Positions 7,789-29,410 of a stretch of DNA of 64,000 nt are shown piece by piece (within the stretch, counting starts at the first letter, position 1; each line of letters opens with the position of its first letter). Made by a program: the position numbers and the translations under genes. The stretch spans positions 62,001 through 126,000 of the IMG/VR virus record IMGVR_UViG_3300009431_000002. One strand, 5' to 3'. Origin of the DNA: a virus. The notes under the pieces were generated by a model, which was not told the DNA's origin, did not search any database, and was given only the letters and a program-made list of their open reading frames with translations.

Positions 7789-8021
7789 TGCGCTTCGACG
7801 AGCGTGACCTCCGGCGCCGCGGCCACAGGTTCCGGGTCGCCAACGGTACAGGCTACGTCACCGACACTCCGCATTTGGATCGAGCGTTGCGCGTGGGTGG
7901 GCGGTCAGCCCTGAACTTCGTGCTGTGGCTCGAGCCCGAGACGCGAGACTGGGTCCAGGTCAGTGCAGCTGGGAGCGACGAACTCCTACCGCGCGGGCAA
8001 TGGCACGTCTCGCTGTACTGA
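7788..8021 (+). CDS. Unrecognised 77-residue protein
   Basis: GTG start overlapping the previous stop by one base (TAGTG). The product begins MRFDERDLRRRGHRFRVANG and is basic at its N-terminus. It is the last gene of the long unit that starts near 735; a hairpin follows at once. Confidence 0.5.
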   Translation: MRFDERDLRRRGHRFRVANGTGYVTDTPHLDRALRVGGRSALNFVLWLEPETRDWVQVSAAGSDELLPRGQWHVSLY

Positions 8022-8025
8022 CCAC

Positions 8026-8053
8026 GGGGAGGCCTGCCAGCCTCTCCATTAGC
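8026..8053 (+). terminator. Hairpin terminator with CATTAGC tail
   Basis: GGGGAGGC (8026-8033) pairs with GCCTCTCC (8040-8047) across a 6-base loop with one G-T pair, followed by ATTAGCC. It closes the first long rightward unit just before the promoter-like motif at 8077. Confidence 0.6.
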
Positions 8054-8076
8054 CTGCAATTACGGGGGGTTGTCGG

Positions 8077-8084
8077 CATAAGGG
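8077..8084 (+). promoter_or_regulatory. Rightward promoter-like motif (CATAAGGG)
   Basis: CATAAGGGGTCCAACAACCC lies 36 bases before ATG 8113 and matches the full consensus, including the TCCAAC element. A GAGGAGG ribosome site follows. Confidence 0.6.
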
Positions 8085-8112
8085 GTCCAACAACCCGAAG
8101 AGGAGGTATCGT

Positions 8113-9330
8113 ATGCCAGACAGGTTCAGACTCGAAGACCATTGCCAGCTGGTGCGCATCAGCGACGAGTGGTGGGCTGCGGACATCGTGCTCACAGAGT
8201 CGCTGGCCAAGCTGTTCATCCGCACCATGCTCCCCAACCGCCGGATCACGTGGCGCCACGTCCACCGCATGGCCATCGACATCCTCGAGGGGAACTACCC
8301 GTTCAACCCCTTCGAGCCGATGGAGTTCGATGTCGACACGGGCCGGATGCGGGGCGGCCAGCAGCGCTGCCACGCCCTCCTGCTGGCGTGCAAACGCCGT
8401 CCTGGGACCACCGTGAGGGTGGCCATCGTCAAGTGCCCCAAGACCGCGATGTACGGACAGGGACTGCCGCAGAAGCCCAAGGACTTTCTGGATACGCCGA
8501 GGGCCGCGCTGAAGACGAAGGTGGCGGCGTTCCTGTGGCTGCTCGAGCGCGGGCCGCGGGCTGTCACTGGATCCTGGCGACCGACTACCGCGCAGATCCT
8601 GGAGACTTACATGGCGTGGCAGGACCTGGTGGATGTCTCGGCCGAGGAGATCCCGACGATGGGCGGGGTGGATTTCCGGCACCACTGCTGCGGCAACTAC
8701 GCGTGGTTCATCGCCCTGGACTGCATCTTCCGGAAGATCGACGACACCAACGCCCGGATCTTCAGGCGACAGGTCGTGGTGGGCGAGGGCCTGGAGGAGG
8801 GCGATCCGGCGCGGACGCTGCGCATCCGCCTCAACGGCCTCGCCACCGACCTGAAGTCCGGTGCCAAGATGAAGTACCACCACAAGCAGCCGTGGTACCG
8901 GATGGCCATGGCTATCCTGGCGTGGAACGCCTTCTCCCAGGACAACGCGCTCAAGCGCCTTACTCAGTCCGCCGACCCCGACACCTTCCCGGAGATCCGC
9001 GGCTGGCTGCGGTGGGTGAGCATCTCATGGCGCCCGCCCAAGACGCGGCCGACGGATCTGTACCTGGAGATGGAGGGCAAGCTCGAGCCCCAGGCCGGCC
9101 CCCCGCAGCCCCCCGAAGACGACATCAAGAAGGAGATGGCGCGACGCGTCGACGGCACCGGCAAGTACTGCTACGACATCTCGAGGTTGCGCCACGTCGC
9201 CGTTGTGACGGGGCTGATGACCGAGGTTGTGGCCGAGACCATGGTCCGCCAGCAGCTGGTGGACGCGATCAAGGCGTCGGGGCTGTCGGTGGAGGCGTTC
9301 CGGACCGAGGTGTGGGGTGACCACGCCTGA
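8113..9330 (+). CDS. ParB-superfamily-like DNA-associated protein
   Basis: A 405-residue protein. The N-terminal 100 residues follow the pattern of ParB/sulfiredoxin-fold phage proteins: a helix with ITWRHVHRMAIDILEG, a strand with an FDVDTGRMR turn, and GGQQRCHALLLA (residues 81-92), equivalent to the GERR or GQHR box of the superfamily. The remaining 300 residues are helical with Cys/His (FRHHCCGNY) and unassigned. It starts a two-gene unit with the tandem helix-turn-helix protein that follows. A role in DNA binding or partition is inference from the fold. Confidence 0.5.
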   Translation: MPDRFRLEDHCQLVRISDEWWAADIVLTESLAKLFIRTMLPNRRITWRHVHRMAIDILEGNYPFNPFEPMEFDVDTGRMRGGQQRCHALLLACKRRPGTTVRVAIVKCPKTAMYGQGLPQKPKDFLDTPRAALKTKVAAFLWLLERGPRAVTGSWRPTTAQILETYMAWQDLVDVSAEEIPTMGGVDFRHHCCGNYAWFIALDCIFRKIDDTNARIFRRQVVVGEGLEEGDPARTLRIRLNGLATDLKSGAKMKYHHKQPWYRMAMAILAWNAFSQDNALKRLTQSADPDTFPEIRGWLRWVSISWRPPKTRPTDLYLEMEGKLEPQAGPPQPPEDDIKKEMARRVDGTGKYCYDISRLRHVAVVTGLMTEVVAETMVRQQLVDAIKASGLSVEAFRTEVWGDHA

Positions 9331-10177
9331 TGGTGGCGCGGCGCTTGAGGCGCACCGGCTCATGCAAGAGGCGTTGGATCGTCTCGGCGCCGGGGATGTC
9401 GTCCGGGCGAAGCGCGCCGCGAAACGCGCGTTCTTGCTGCTGGGCGATGTGGTTGCTGCGTCGAAGCAGCCCGTTCCGCTGCTCCGCTCCGATGAGGTGG
9501 ACTGGTCCAGGTGGGACGGGCTGCTCGGTGTGATCGACGACGAGTCCCTCGCACCGCTGATCGGTTGCAGCGTCTGGGCCGTTGGCAGGCGGCGTTGCAA
9601 GCGCGGAATCCGCCACTCCAGGTGGGTCGAGTGGACCCCGAGTGCGCTGGCGCTTCTAGGCCGCGTGAGCGACACGGATGCTGCTGCTGTGCTCGGGTGC
9701 ACCCACTCTTCGGTTCGACAGAAGCGGCTGTCGTTGGGCATCCCCCTCTACCGTGCCGAGCCGCCGGAGTGGCGCGGCCTTGTGGGCAAGGTGCCCGATG
9801 CGGAACTGGCACGTGAGTATGGCGTATCTGTCCACACAGTGCGGGATCGTCGTCGAGCTGCCGGGAAGAAGCCCTGCCCAGGTACAGGCAGCGGCCTGGA
9901 GTGGATCGATGAGGACGATGCGATTCTGGGCACCATGCCTGATTCCCGTGTAGCCAAGCTCGTGGGTTGTTCGGCGTCGTCTGTCGGAAACCGCCGGCGT
10001 GAACTGGGGATCCCCGCGTTCTCAAAGTACGACTGGGCTCCGCATGAGCACCTGCTCGGCAAGATCTCGGATGAGGAGATGGCGCGTCTCGTTGGCTGCA
10101 CTGTGCGCGGCGCAGAGAATCGGCGGCGGAAGCGGGCGCGGGGTATTCCCATGCCGGGACGTTGGCCGAAGTCGTGA
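9317..10177 (+). CDS. Protein of five tandem helix-turn-helix units
   Basis: GTG 9317, overlapping the previous gene by 14 bases, gives 286 residues. After a helical N-terminus come five repeats of 43-46 residues (about 62-100, 103-144, 150-187, 195-235 and 240-279). Each follows W...LLG...D...A..(V/L)GC(S/T)...V..RRR..GIP, the pattern of a homeodomain-like helix-turn-helix with an Arg-rich recognition helix. An array of five should contact a long DNA stretch. It is co-transcribed with the ParB-like protein and ends at a hairpin. The target is unknown. Confidence 0.7.
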   Translation: MTTPDGGAALEAHRLMQEALDRLGAGDVVRAKRAAKRAFLLLGDVVAASKQPVPLLRSDEVDWSRWDGLLGVIDDESLAPLIGCSVWAVGRRRCKRGIRHSRWVEWTPSALALLGRVSDTDAAAVLGCTHSSVRQKRLSLGIPLYRAEPPEWRGLVGKVPDAELAREYGVSVHTVRDRRRAAGKKPCPGTGSGLEWIDEDDAILGTMPDSRVAKLVGCSASSVGNRRRELGIPAFSKYDWAPHEHLLGKISDEEMARLVGCTVRGAENRRRKRARGIPMPGRWPKS

Positions 10178-10178
10178 C

Positions 10179-10210
10179 GGGAGGTGGCCAGCCGGCCCCT
10201 CTCCATTAGC
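10179..10210 (+). terminator. Hairpin terminator with CATTAGC tail
   Basis: An imperfect stem (GGGAGGTGGCC with GGCCCCTCTCC, 4-base loop AGCC) is followed by ATTAGCTCG. It ends the two-gene unit of 8113-10177. Confidence 0.55.
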
Positions 10211-10235
10211 TCGCAAATGCAACTACGGCAGTTGG

Positions 10236-10243
10236 GATAAGGA
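10236..10243 (+). promoter_or_regulatory. Rightward promoter-like motif (GATAAGGA)
   Basis: GATAAGGATCACAACACCC lies 33 bases before ATG 10269 and keeps the downstream ACAAC element. An AAAGGAGAGG ribosome site follows. Confidence 0.5.
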
Positions 10244-10268
10244 TCACAACACCCGAAAGGAGAGGATC

Positions 10269-10436
10269 ATGATCGATACGAAGACGATGGCTGACGCAGT
10301 TCGCAAGGCCATGAAGGAGAACGGAGTCGACGACGCCGTCATCACCATCACCCAAGGCGACACGGCCCGGGTCACGGGCTACGGCGTGCGCAAGGATGGC
10401 GCGAAGGTGTCGATGAAGCTCGAGGTGACGCCATGA
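10269..10436 (+). CDS. Unrecognised 55-residue protein
   Basis: Start at ATG 10269 after AGGAGAGG. The product begins MIDTKTMADAVRKAMKENGV and continues into a short beta-rich tail. No motif is visible. It overlaps the next gene by ATGA at 10433. Confidence 0.6.
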   Translation: MIDTKTMADAVRKAMKENGVDDAVITITQGDTARVTGYGVRKDGAKVSMKLEVTP

Positions 10437-11339: not shown

Positions 11340-11445
11340 CCCACAAGGCACACGAGAGCATCGCCCTGTACCCCTACACACCACCTGCCCTCCTACAACA
11401 CCTCTTTGTGCGCGGCTGACCACGGCAAAGGGCATGACCGCAGGG

Positions 11446-11453
11446 TATAAGGG
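11446..11453 (+). promoter_or_regulatory. Rightward promoter-like motif (TATAAGGG)
   Basis: TATAAGGGGCCCGAACTTAC lies 37 bases before ATG 11483, with a GAAGGGAG ribosome site. It is the best TATAAG match in the left half. Confidence 0.55.
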
Positions 11454-11482
11454 GCCCGAACTTACTGAAGAAGGGAGAATCG

Positions 11483-25657: not shown

Positions 25658-25709
25658 AGTCGAGGCGAACTGCGACGGGGCAACGAAGCGAAAGCTGCGA
25701 GTTGTTCGC

Positions 25710-25717
25710 TATAAGGG
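25710..25717 (+). promoter_or_regulatory. Rightward promoter-like motif (TATAAGGG)
   Basis: TATAAGGGCCCCAACTAGC lies 36 bases before GTG 25746, with a TGGAGGT ribosome site. It would start the MoxR-VWA operon. No TTGACA is seen upstream. Confidence 0.6.
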
Positions 25718-25745
25718 CCCCAACTAGCAATCACCTGGAGGTACC

Positions 25746-26696
25746 GTGAATCAGATCCCCACCATGCGGATGAGCATCGAGGACTCCATCGTCCTCAATG
25801 AGCCGCCGTACGTGGACGCGACCGGCCTGGCCGCGTTCCTCGCAGACCACCTGAAGTTCGTCCCGACCGTGCTGTACGGCCCCAAGGGCATCGGCAAGAC
25901 GCTGTGCCTCGAGTGGCTGGCGCACACGCTCAACCTCGCCAACCTGCAGGTCTCGTGCACCGAGGGGACCAAGGAGAAGCACCTCTTCGGTGCCATGGCC
26001 CCGAGCGACACTCCCGACCAGTACTGGTTCGTCCTCGGAGCCCTGGCCGCGGCCACCGACATGGCCAACGAGATCGCCAAGACCAAGGAGTGCGACGGCG
26101 TGATGCTGCGACTCGGCGAGGTCAACGCCCTGACGCCCCAGATGCAGAAGTCGCTCAACGCCTTCACGGACTGGCAGCAGGCCGTTCACCTCCCGCAGAT
26201 CGGGCGGGCGCTCCAGCTCGCCGAGGAGGCCAGGGTCTGGGTCGTCGCCGACATGAATCCCAGCGCCCACGGCGGCGTCTTCGACCTCAACGAGGACCTC
26301 AAGTCCAGGTTCCAGGAGGTGTGGCTCTCCTACCCGCACCCCACGCAGGAGCGCGTCATCCTCAACACGGTCGTGCCCGGCATCGACAGCGACGTCATCA
26401 CCAACATGCTCGACCTCGCCACCCAGACGCGGCAGGGCTCACTGTCCTACGCGCTGTCGACCCGCGACCTCGTCGCCTGCCTCCAGAACGCCTATGGCCG
26501 CGACGACAACAAGCCCATGGGCCTGGACAAGGCGCTCAAGCTCCTGTCCTACCGCTACACCGAGGGCGAGGACCGCGACGCCTTCCACGCGCGGACCAAG
26601 GCCAAGACCGACATCGACCTGGCCGGCATCGCGTTGATGACCCCGCCCAACCTCTCGTCGCCGGCGACGCCCGGCCGCGCCCGGGCATCGATCTGA
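25746..26696 (+). CDS. MoxR/CobS-like AAA+ ATPase
   Basis: GTG 25746 after TGGAGGTACC. The 316-residue protein has Walker A YGPKGIGKTL (residues 44-53), a Walker-B-like GVMLRLGEVNALTPQMQKSL (about 118-137, with Glu125 but without the usual DE pair), sensor 1 VADMNPSAHGG (Asn171), the probable arginine finger SRFQEVW (R188) and a sensor 2-like LSTRDLV. This matches the MoxR/CobS/NorQ group, which acts with VWA partners. A CobT-like VWA protein lies 3.6 kb downstream. The Walker B change should be noted for activity. Confidence 0.75.
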   Translation: MNQIPTMRMSIEDSIVLNEPPYVDATGLAAFLADHLKFVPTVLYGPKGIGKTLCLEWLAHTLNLANLQVSCTEGTKEKHLFGAMAPSDTPDQYWFVLGALAAATDMANEIAKTKECDGVMLRLGEVNALTPQMQKSLNAFTDWQQAVHLPQIGRALQLAEEARVWVVADMNPSAHGGVFDLNEDLKSRFQEVWLSYPHPTQERVILNTVVPGIDSDVITNMLDLATQTRQGSLSYALSTRDLVACLQNAYGRDDNKPMGLDKALKLLSYRYTEGEDRDAFHARTKAKTDIDLAGIALMTPPNLSSPATPGRARASI

Positions 26697-29011: not shown

Positions 29012-29023
29012 TGGAGATGGCGG

Positions 29024-29031
29024 CACAAGAA
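29024..29031 (+). promoter_or_regulatory. Rightward promoter-like motif (CACAAGAA)
   Basis: CACAAGAAGGACAACTACTACGAGG lies 33 bases before ATG 29057. It has AAGAAGG in place of AAGGGG but keeps ACAAC. Confidence 0.45.
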
Positions 29032-29056
29032 GGACAACTACTACGAGGAGATGCCC

Positions 29057-29410
29057 ATGCCTGTACCCAAGCCCAGTGACGTCCCCGAGGGGGACAAGGT
29101 CCTCTTCCTCACGATCCGCGACGACCACGCCGTCATCCTGGCCCGCGCCAAGGTCGACGGCGAGTACGCCACCCTCGCCTGCCACATGGTCAAGCCACAC
29201 AGCGCCGTCGGCCCCTCCTTCGAGGGCCCCGACGGCACGCGCATCGTACCCATTGGCGTCGTCTCGGGGCTGACCGAGGCCGACTTCGCTCGCGTCACCG
29301 ACCTCGAGGGCGCGCCCCTGCAGAAGCTGAAGCTGGATGAAGATGGACCCGGACCTGCTGATCGTGATCCTGCTGCTGACGGTGCTGGCCGTGGCGGCGT
29401 GGAGAAGTAG
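29057..29410 (+). CDS. Unrecognised 117-residue protein
   Basis: ATG 29057 is preferred to ATG 29051 because GAGGAG would abut the earlier start. The protein begins MPVPKPSDVPEGDKVLFLTI and is beta-rich. Its last 25 codons overlap a hydrophobic frame (29337-29414) and look compositionally weak (GPADRDPAADGAGRGG), so its true end is uncertain. Confidence 0.5.
   Translation: MPVPKPSDVPEGDKVLFLTIRDDHAVILARAKVDGEYATLACHMVKPHSAVGPSFEGPDGTRIVPIGVVSGLTEADFARVTDLEGAPLQKLKLDEDGPGPADRDPAADGAGRGGVEK

What the first reader, a model, noticed from the sequence alone, without database searches (positions are those of the whole stretch)
9317..10177. Five tandem helix-turn-helix repeats in one small protein
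Repeats of 43-46 residues share W...LLG...D...A..GC(S/T)...V..RRR..GIP, each with an Arg-rich recognition helix. An array of five could read a long DNA site modularly. I do not know a described phage regulator of this exact form.
Basis: partly seen in the sequence, partly recalled or inferred. Interest (0 to 1): 0.65.

Follow-up and report, generated by a model that had tools for sequence, protein, structure and literature searches.

The report
Phage DNA-binding protein, five tandem repeats
A phage gene encodes a small protein made of five different copies of a classic DNA-gripping module in a row; the same kind of repeat array turns up, unnamed and undescribed as far as I could find, on plasmids, in prophages, in a few soil bacteria and fused to phage DNA-cutting enzymes, and its likely base-reading positions are among the most variable parts, which makes it a candidate modular DNA reader.

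Summary
The ORF 9317-10177 (+, GTG start, 286 aa) carries five 43-46-residue repeats. A model built only from repeats of Vibrio phage GIY-YIG nucleases finds all five (E = 1e-38). AlphaFold2 gives a three-helix HTH unit for each repeat, and the last two repeats alone reach mean pLDDT 91.6. It is one member of a wider, apparently undescribed set of tandem-HTH proteins with 3-11 repeats. Relatives stand alone on many Pseudomonas plasmids (pWW0, pQBR103), in prophages and in a few Verrucomicrobia, and form the C-terminal part of GIY-YIG homing endonucleases. The window protein has no nuclease domain. Across 163 repeats, the five columns that canonical HTH numbering marks as base-contacting are among the six most variable, while one Arg is kept in 162 of 163. 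That fits repeats reading different sub-sites but does not prove it: these columns are not better conserved between collinear homologues than other surface columns. Most likely function (inferred): a sequence-specific DNA-binding regulator, acquired recently (GC3 0.74 against 0.92 for other genes) and coupled to the preceding gene; an 18-19-bp block repeated in two nearby leaders is a testable operator candidate. T5 D5, the best-known phage multi-HTH regulator, is not a detectable sequence relative.

The parts
9317..10177 (+). Tandem-HTH array gene, 286 aa, GTG start overlapping the stop of the preceding gene (alternative start ATG at 9362)
   Evidence: five repeats by independent HMM; foreign composition, GC3 0.74 vs 0.916 +/- 0.038, CAI 0.41 vs 0.75 +/- 0.07
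9317..9493 (+). N-terminal segment without repeats, predicted helical hairpin (helices at residues 7-22 and 25-47), low confidence
   Evidence: AF2 pLDDT mostly 47-67; no family match in this part
9494..9625 (+). HTH repeat 1 (DWSRWDGLLG..GCSVWAVGRRRCKRGI)
   Evidence: (weakest by the independent model, 11.6 bits)
9626..9763 (+). HTH repeat 2 (EWTPSALALLG..GCTHSSVRQKRLSLGIP)
   Evidence: (25.4 bits)
9764..9895 (+). HTH repeat 3 (PEWRGLVG..GVSVHTVRDRRRAAGK)
   Evidence: (27.8 bits)
9896..10027 (+). HTH repeat 4 (EWIDEDDAILG..GCSASSVGNRRRELGIP)
   Evidence: (40.8 bits)
10028..10162 (+). HTH repeat 5 (DWAPHEHLLG..GCTVRGAENRRRKRARGIP)
   Evidence: (14.3 bits)
8113..9330 (+). Preceding gene, 405 aa, PHROG 5931 (unknown function); its stop overlaps the array gene's start, so the two are probably translationally coupled
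   Evidence: phrog_5931, E 2e-19; normal GC3 0.91
8020..8112 (+). Leader A upstream of the two-gene unit; contains the block CCTCTCCATTAGCCTGCAA (8041-8059), candidate operator (inferred)
   Evidence: alignment score 45 to leader B, window tiles mean 14.1 sd 2.4, next best unrelated place 28
10178..10269 (+). Leader B directly after the array gene; contains CCTCTCCATTAGCTCGCAA (10198-10216), candidate operator (inferred)

Best explanation
The gene encodes a non-enzymatic double-strand DNA-binding protein: five trihelical HTH units in tandem, joined by short linkers, behind a helical N-terminal segment. Shown by computation: five homologous units with an HTH fold; no nuclease domain; membership in a wider set of tandem arrays of the same repeat; hypervariability at the columns that canonical HTH numbering marks as base-contacting; foreign codon usage; start overlapping the stop of the preceding gene. 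Inferred: successive recognition helices enter the major groove one after another, the near-invariant Arg (and usually a second basic residue before it) contacts the backbone, and each unit prefers a different 3-4 bp, so the array recognises one asymmetric site of roughly 15-20 bp. Most likely role: a sequence-specific transcriptional regulator acquired by horizontal transfer that acts on a few phage (or host) promoters. The two copies of a leader that bracket its own two-gene unit, sharing an 18-19-bp block, are the first candidates for its site.
For: Five repeats found by a model that did not see the window. HTH folds by AF2. Pfam HTH_23 and HTH_AsnC above cut-off. PHROG matches include 'transcriptional regulator, D5-like' and HTH DNA-binding families. 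Standalone arrays without nuclease on plasmids and in prophages. Same repeats as the C-terminal part of GIY-YIG endonucleases, where a DNA-recognition role is the natural reading. In 163 repeats the predicted contact columns (HTH positions 12, 13, 16, 17, 20) are entropy ranks 1, 2, 3, 4 and 6 of 38, and Arg at position 19 is kept in 162 of 163. Two 11-repeat arrays in two genomes of one family are collinear with identical spacing, so arrays can be maintained unit by unit. Duplicated leader bracketing the unit.
Against: No binding data. Predicted contact columns are not more conserved between collinear homologues than other surface columns (0.395 against 0.508 overall; 0.58 against 0.55 in the 11-repeat pair), so a fixed specificity per unit is not demonstrated. 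No orthologue of the window protein was found, so selection on it cannot be measured. The spatial arrangement of the five units is not predicted with confidence (pTM 0.32). No significant PDB fold match (best E 0.12-0.13). The link between the array and the leader block is only proximity, and leader B also shares its 3' half with about ten other start-associated sites in this phage.
Confidence: 0.55

Rival explanations
1. It is the DNA-targeting half of a GIY-YIG homing endonuclease that has lost (or works in trans with) its nuclease: a leftover of, or partner for, a mobile homing gene rather than a regulator.
For: Closest hits in the phage collection are GIY-YIG homing endonucleases whose C-terminal parts are 3-5 copies of the same repeat. 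Foreign composition fits a mobile gene.
Against: No GIY-YIG or other nuclease match in the protein or in the preceding gene; the ORF is intact and has its own N-terminal segment; its start overlaps the stop of the preceding gene, as in an established operon; standalone arrays are abundant on plasmids and occur in prophages and chromosomes.
Confidence: 0.2
2. A general DNA-coating, replication or architectural protein, used like T5 D5, with little sequence specificity.
For: Best annotated PHROG is 'transcriptional regulator, D5-like'. T5 D5 is annotated as a DNA-binding protein required for DNA replication and late transcription and lies next to the D6 helicase gene. In prophage L013 the array gene lies between a gene that by eye resembles a DnaB-type helicase and the terminase genes (not searched against a library).
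Against: The repeat model does not match T5 D5 beyond shuffled sequences; contact columns differ strongly between units, which non-specific binding would not require.
Confidence: 0.15
3. HTH folds used for protein or RNA contacts (for example host takeover) rather than DNA reading.
For: Some HTH units have lost DNA binding in other families (general knowledge); hypervariability could reflect an arms race with a protein partner.
Against: Near-invariant Arg after the recognition helix and fusion of the same repeats to a DNA endonuclease domain.
Confidence: 0.07

Closest known systems
GIY-YIG homing endonucleases of Vibrio phages eugene 12A10, helene 12B3, 424E50-1, 1.187.O and 1.170.O, and Pseudoalteromonas phage J2-1
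   Same: C-terminal tandem copies of the same repeat, 3-5 units, 24-37% identity to the window protein or array in pairwise comparison
   Different: They carry an N-terminal GIY-YIG nuclease domain (PF01541, E 3.5e-10 and 1.9e-11 for two of them); the window protein does not
Standalone array proteins on Pseudomonas plasmids (pWW0 HXE35_RS00035, pPma4326F PMA4326_RS28275, pQBR103 paralogues), annotated 'hypothetical protein'
   Same: Four to five repeats of the same type, no nuclease domain, E down to 6e-19
   Different: Other hosts; the predicted contact residues differ; the window's N-terminal segment was not recognised in them
T5 D5 and PHROG 323 ('transcriptional regulator, D5-like')
   Same: Phage protein with several HTH units; PHROG 323 profile matches the window protein (E 6e-9, residues 162-260) and prophage relative L014 (E 3.1e-32)
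   Different: T5 D5 itself does not match the repeat model above shuffles (E 0.18 against 0.47); its units are spaced differently
I-TevI-type and NUMOD-bearing homing endonucleases
   Same: A nuclease domain with separate sequence-recognising modules, including an HTH (PMC1564403)
   Different: NUMOD modules and I-TevI's mixed DNA-binding domain are not arrays of this repeat; the window protein has no nuclease
Eukaryotic R2R3-Myb and double homeodomains such as DUX4
   Same: Tandem trihelical units, each with one recognition helix (general knowledge); DUX4 is the top but non-significant Foldseek hit for repeats 4-5 (E 0.13)
   Different: No sequence relationship shown; an analogy of architecture only
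TALE-like and other DNA-binding tandem repeat proteins (STAR, MOON, pTERF; PMC11417379)
   Same: Repeat arrays with hypervariable positions proposed or shown to set specificity
   Different: Other folds; that survey's main text does not mention helix-turn-helix, HTH, Myb or phage families

Membership tests
Tandem-HTH array set (this repeat; Vibrio GIY-YIG C-termini, plasmid and prophage arrays) | At least three tandem copies of the W..(E)..LLG...D..(I/L/V)A..(L)G.(S/T)...V..(R)R..(L)GI unit, about 43-50 residues apart | tested here: met
   Five copies by a model excluding the window protein, E 1e-38 and 1.4e-52
Tandem-HTH array set (this repeat; Vibrio GIY-YIG C-termini, plasmid and prophage arrays) | Each unit folds as a helix-turn-helix | tested here: met
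   AF2, (prediction only)
GIY-YIG homing endonuclease | GIY-YIG catalytic domain | tested here: not met
   No PF01541 match in the window protein or the preceding gene, while the two Vibrio relatives match
T5 D5 family | Sequence homology to T5 D5 | tested here: not met
   Repeat model on T5 D5 E 0.18, best shuffle 0.47; blastp best E 2.0. The PHROG 323 profile does match part of the protein
T5 D5 family | Role in replication and late transcription | not testable with these tools
   needs a phage genetics experiment
Pfam HTH_23 / HTH_AsnC-type | Score above the curated cut-off | tested here: met
   30.5 against 24.6 and 28.6 against 27 bits, each covering only part of single units
Modular one-repeat-one-subsite DNA reader (TALE or zinc-finger type behaviour) | Hypervariable positions at the expected DNA-contacting face | tested here: met
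   Contact columns are entropy ranks 1, 2, 3, 4, 6 of 38 over 163 repeats
Modular one-repeat-one-subsite DNA reader (TALE or zinc-finger type behaviour) | Contact residues conserved unit by unit between homologues, beyond other surface residues | tested here: inconclusive
   0.395 against 0.508 overall; 0.58 against 0.55 in the 11-repeat pair, 0.72 against 0.69 in pWW0/pAER57, 0.75 against 0.56 in two Vibrio nucleases, lower in others
Modular one-repeat-one-subsite DNA reader (TALE or zinc-finger type behaviour) | Defined motif that changes with the repeat | not testable with these tools
   needs SELEX or bacterial one-hybrid

The most novel reading that the evidence does not exclude
The repeat defines an undescribed class of prokaryotic modular DNA readers, carried by phages, plasmids and some bacterial chromosomes in 3-11 units, in which each HTH unit reads its own few base pairs through hypervariable recognition-helix positions, so that arrays retarget by unit change and can be joined to nucleases (as in the GIY-YIG homing enzymes) or used alone as regulators.
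Probability: 0.25. Interest if true: 0.8.

Novelty: new variant of a known kind. Interest (0 to 1): 0.5.

Why it matters
HTH domains are the commonest DNA-binding fold in bacteria but usually read DNA as one unit or a dimer. A protein family built from many different HTH units in a row, shared by phages, plasmids and homing nucleases and most variable where DNA would be read, would be a prokaryotic counterpart of zinc-finger or R2R3-Myb arrays. It would explain a group of 'hypothetical proteins' on well-studied plasmids such as pWW0, and it is directly testable by SELEX or bacterial one-hybrid on a few natural arrays.

Tried and rejected
Searching IMG/VR with the window protein alone, with Vibrio P0003 and with the mixed alignment A2 gave no relatives; alignments led by the closest plasmid relative, or built on a conserved repeat stretch, worked. 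One pattern alignment (A7) contained two hand-altered repeats and was discarded unused; the search was done with natural sequences (A8). Looking for orthologues or an empty site through the neighbouring genes failed: neither the upstream nor the downstream gene found a relative in IMG/VR, and megablast of window 1-24000 found no phage. Homology to T5 D5 was considered because of PHROG 323 and rejected at the sequence level. Foldseek of the whole model and of repeats 4-5 gave only non-significant hits to DNA-binding proteins and others. The prediction that contact columns would be better conserved than other surface columns between homologues was not borne out. The idea that the leader block is unique to the array unit was weakened: its 3' half recurs at about ten other start sites. 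Literature searches found no description of this repeat family; only open-licence papers are held.

Full report
Observation. The + strand ORF 9317-10177 begins with GTG (inside the last codons of the preceding gene, whose stop is at 9328-9330) and encodes 286 aa. Residues 60-282 hold five repeats with Trp at 63, 106, 152, 196 and 240; W, G, D, A, G and R are invariant in the five. An HMM built only from six repeats of Vibrio phage GIY-YIG nucleases finds all five (E = 1e-38; units 11.6 to 40.8 bits) and no other array in the window. A model from all other collected repeats without the window's own gives 1.4e-52, with the best of 2000 shuffled sequences at about 0.5. The rest of the 202-kb virus record has no second array.

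Fold. AlphaFold2 with seven related arrays gives helices consistent with an HTH in each of the five units; pLDDT is mostly 70-91 in the repeats and low in the N-terminal helical hairpin and the C-terminus; pTM 0.32, so the relative placement of units is not predicted. For repeats 4-5 with 24 natural repeat pairs, mean pLDDT is 91.6. Foldseek finds nothing significant in the PDB; the weak hits include double homeodomains, AraC-type domains and transposase DNA-binding domains.

Relatives. The best phage hits are GIY-YIG nucleases in which the GIY-YIG domain is followed by 3-5 copies of the same repeat. tblastn against plasmids finds 159 records, 133 of them Pseudomonas, with up to nine places per plasmid (E-value limit 1). 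These include standalone arrays of four or five units on pWW0, pPma4326F, pQBR103, pMPC6-47K and others, all annotated hypothetical or DNA-binding. IMG/VR contributes prophage arrays of eight, five and four units. Bacterial genomes contribute arrays in Formosimonas and in Verrucomicrobia, and more loosely spaced 2-3-unit proteins in MAGs labelled Deltaproteobacteria, proteobacterium and Phycisphaerae. One Verrucomicrobiales MAG has many array pieces in several long ORFs, and a second genome of its family has an 11-unit array collinear with one of them, with identical spacing. Occurrence is sporadic: 4 of 195 genomes of that phylum (three of the four only marginal, E about 9e-4) and 4 of 274 of the class of Formosimonas, which fits horizontal spread. 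These two tallies are lower bounds, because only 8-11 first-look candidates per genome were scored.

Function of the unit. Aligning 163 repeats to a 38-column model and applying canonical HTH numbering (Gly = position 9) marks columns 25, 26, 29, 30 and 33 (positions 12, 13, 16, 17, 20) as base-contacting, a choice made from general knowledge before the entropy ranking was computed. These are entropy ranks 2, 4, 6, 1 and 3 of 38. Arg at position 19 is present in 162 of 163. Between different units of the collinear pairs the contact columns are 9-17% identical. Between same-index units they are 15-75% identical, about equal to or below the other surface columns in most pairs. So the reading face is hypervariable, but unit-by-unit preservation beyond the general surface is not shown.

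Setting. The window belongs to a tailed phage with no near relative found: major head protein, endolysin and terminase-like genes, a head protein about 27-29% identical to those of Salmonella phage Arash and Vibrio phages D69, D148 and D181. The array gene's GC3 is 0.74 against 0.916 +/- 0.038 in 27 other genes (CAI 0.41 against 0.75, on a gene set chosen partly by GC3), so it looks acquired. The preceding gene (PHROG 5931) has normal composition. The two-gene unit lies between two copies of a roughly 90-bp leader (8020-8112 and 10178-10269; local alignment score 45, window tiles mean 14.1, sd 2.4, next unrelated place 28). These share CCTCTCCATTAGC(C/T)(T/C)GCAA. The 3' half resembles about ten other sites directly before start codons, all on +, so part of it is a general start-associated element of this phage; the upstream block is the part more particular to these two leaders, with similar ATTAGC stretches at 671 and 28987.

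Mechanism and judgement. The protein is best read as a DNA-binding array without enzymatic domain. That it is sequence-specific, reads a long asymmetric site and regulates transcription is inferred. Overall confidence 0.55; homing-endonuclease leftover 0.2; D5-like general DNA-binding role 0.15; protein or RNA contacts 0.07. By kind it is a new variant of HTH proteins; the family-wide reading (a modular HTH code) is the novel case, probability 0.25. PMC11417379, a survey of DNA-binding tandem repeat proteins, does not mention HTH repeats in its main text. PMC13405049 is cited only for the recent finding that T5 D5, a phage HTH protein, can be sensed by a retron.

Noticed in passing
window 8020-8112, 10178-10269, 671-728, 11439-11481, 25703-25749, 29016-29057; L094:10386-10429, L094:15942-15984: A start-associated leader element, roughly GGNATAAGGG..C.AAC..CC.GAA.GGAGG just before the start codon, 13 hits with E < 10, all on the + strand; reminiscent of the start-associated sequences of Cluster K mycobacteriophages (PMC3203893, title and abstract seen only). 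Some similarity comes from the ribosome-binding site.
   Followed up: partly
L007, L010, L091 (IncP-9-type and related plasmids), L052, L014: Array genes sit next to or within a few kb of umuDC / Y-family DNA polymerase genes and, on IncP-9-type plasmids, right after a DUF1173 gene; in L014 the polymerase is recognised by eye only.
   Followed up: no
L009, L090: Array genes beside conjugation genes (mobF; virB11) on Pseudomonas plasmids, suggesting a transfer-related role in some arrays.
   Followed up: no
L076-L084 (MAG G004 and genome G203): Verrucomicrobial genomes with several array genes of up to 11 units, including a collinear 11-unit pair in two genomes of one family; some copies carry an in-frame stop.
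   Followed up: partly
L021, L022, L023, L024: Proteins with 2-3 of the same repeats, in L021 and L023 separated by a long low-complexity linker (Ala/Lys/Pro-rich in L023), in MAGs labelled proteobacterium, Deltaproteobacteria and Phycisphaerae.
   Followed up: no
Pseudoalteromonas phage J2-1 (L006; record positions 59-265 and 119845-120294): An unannotated GIY-YIG plus repeat-array gene appears to be split across the ends of the linearised record.
   Followed up: no
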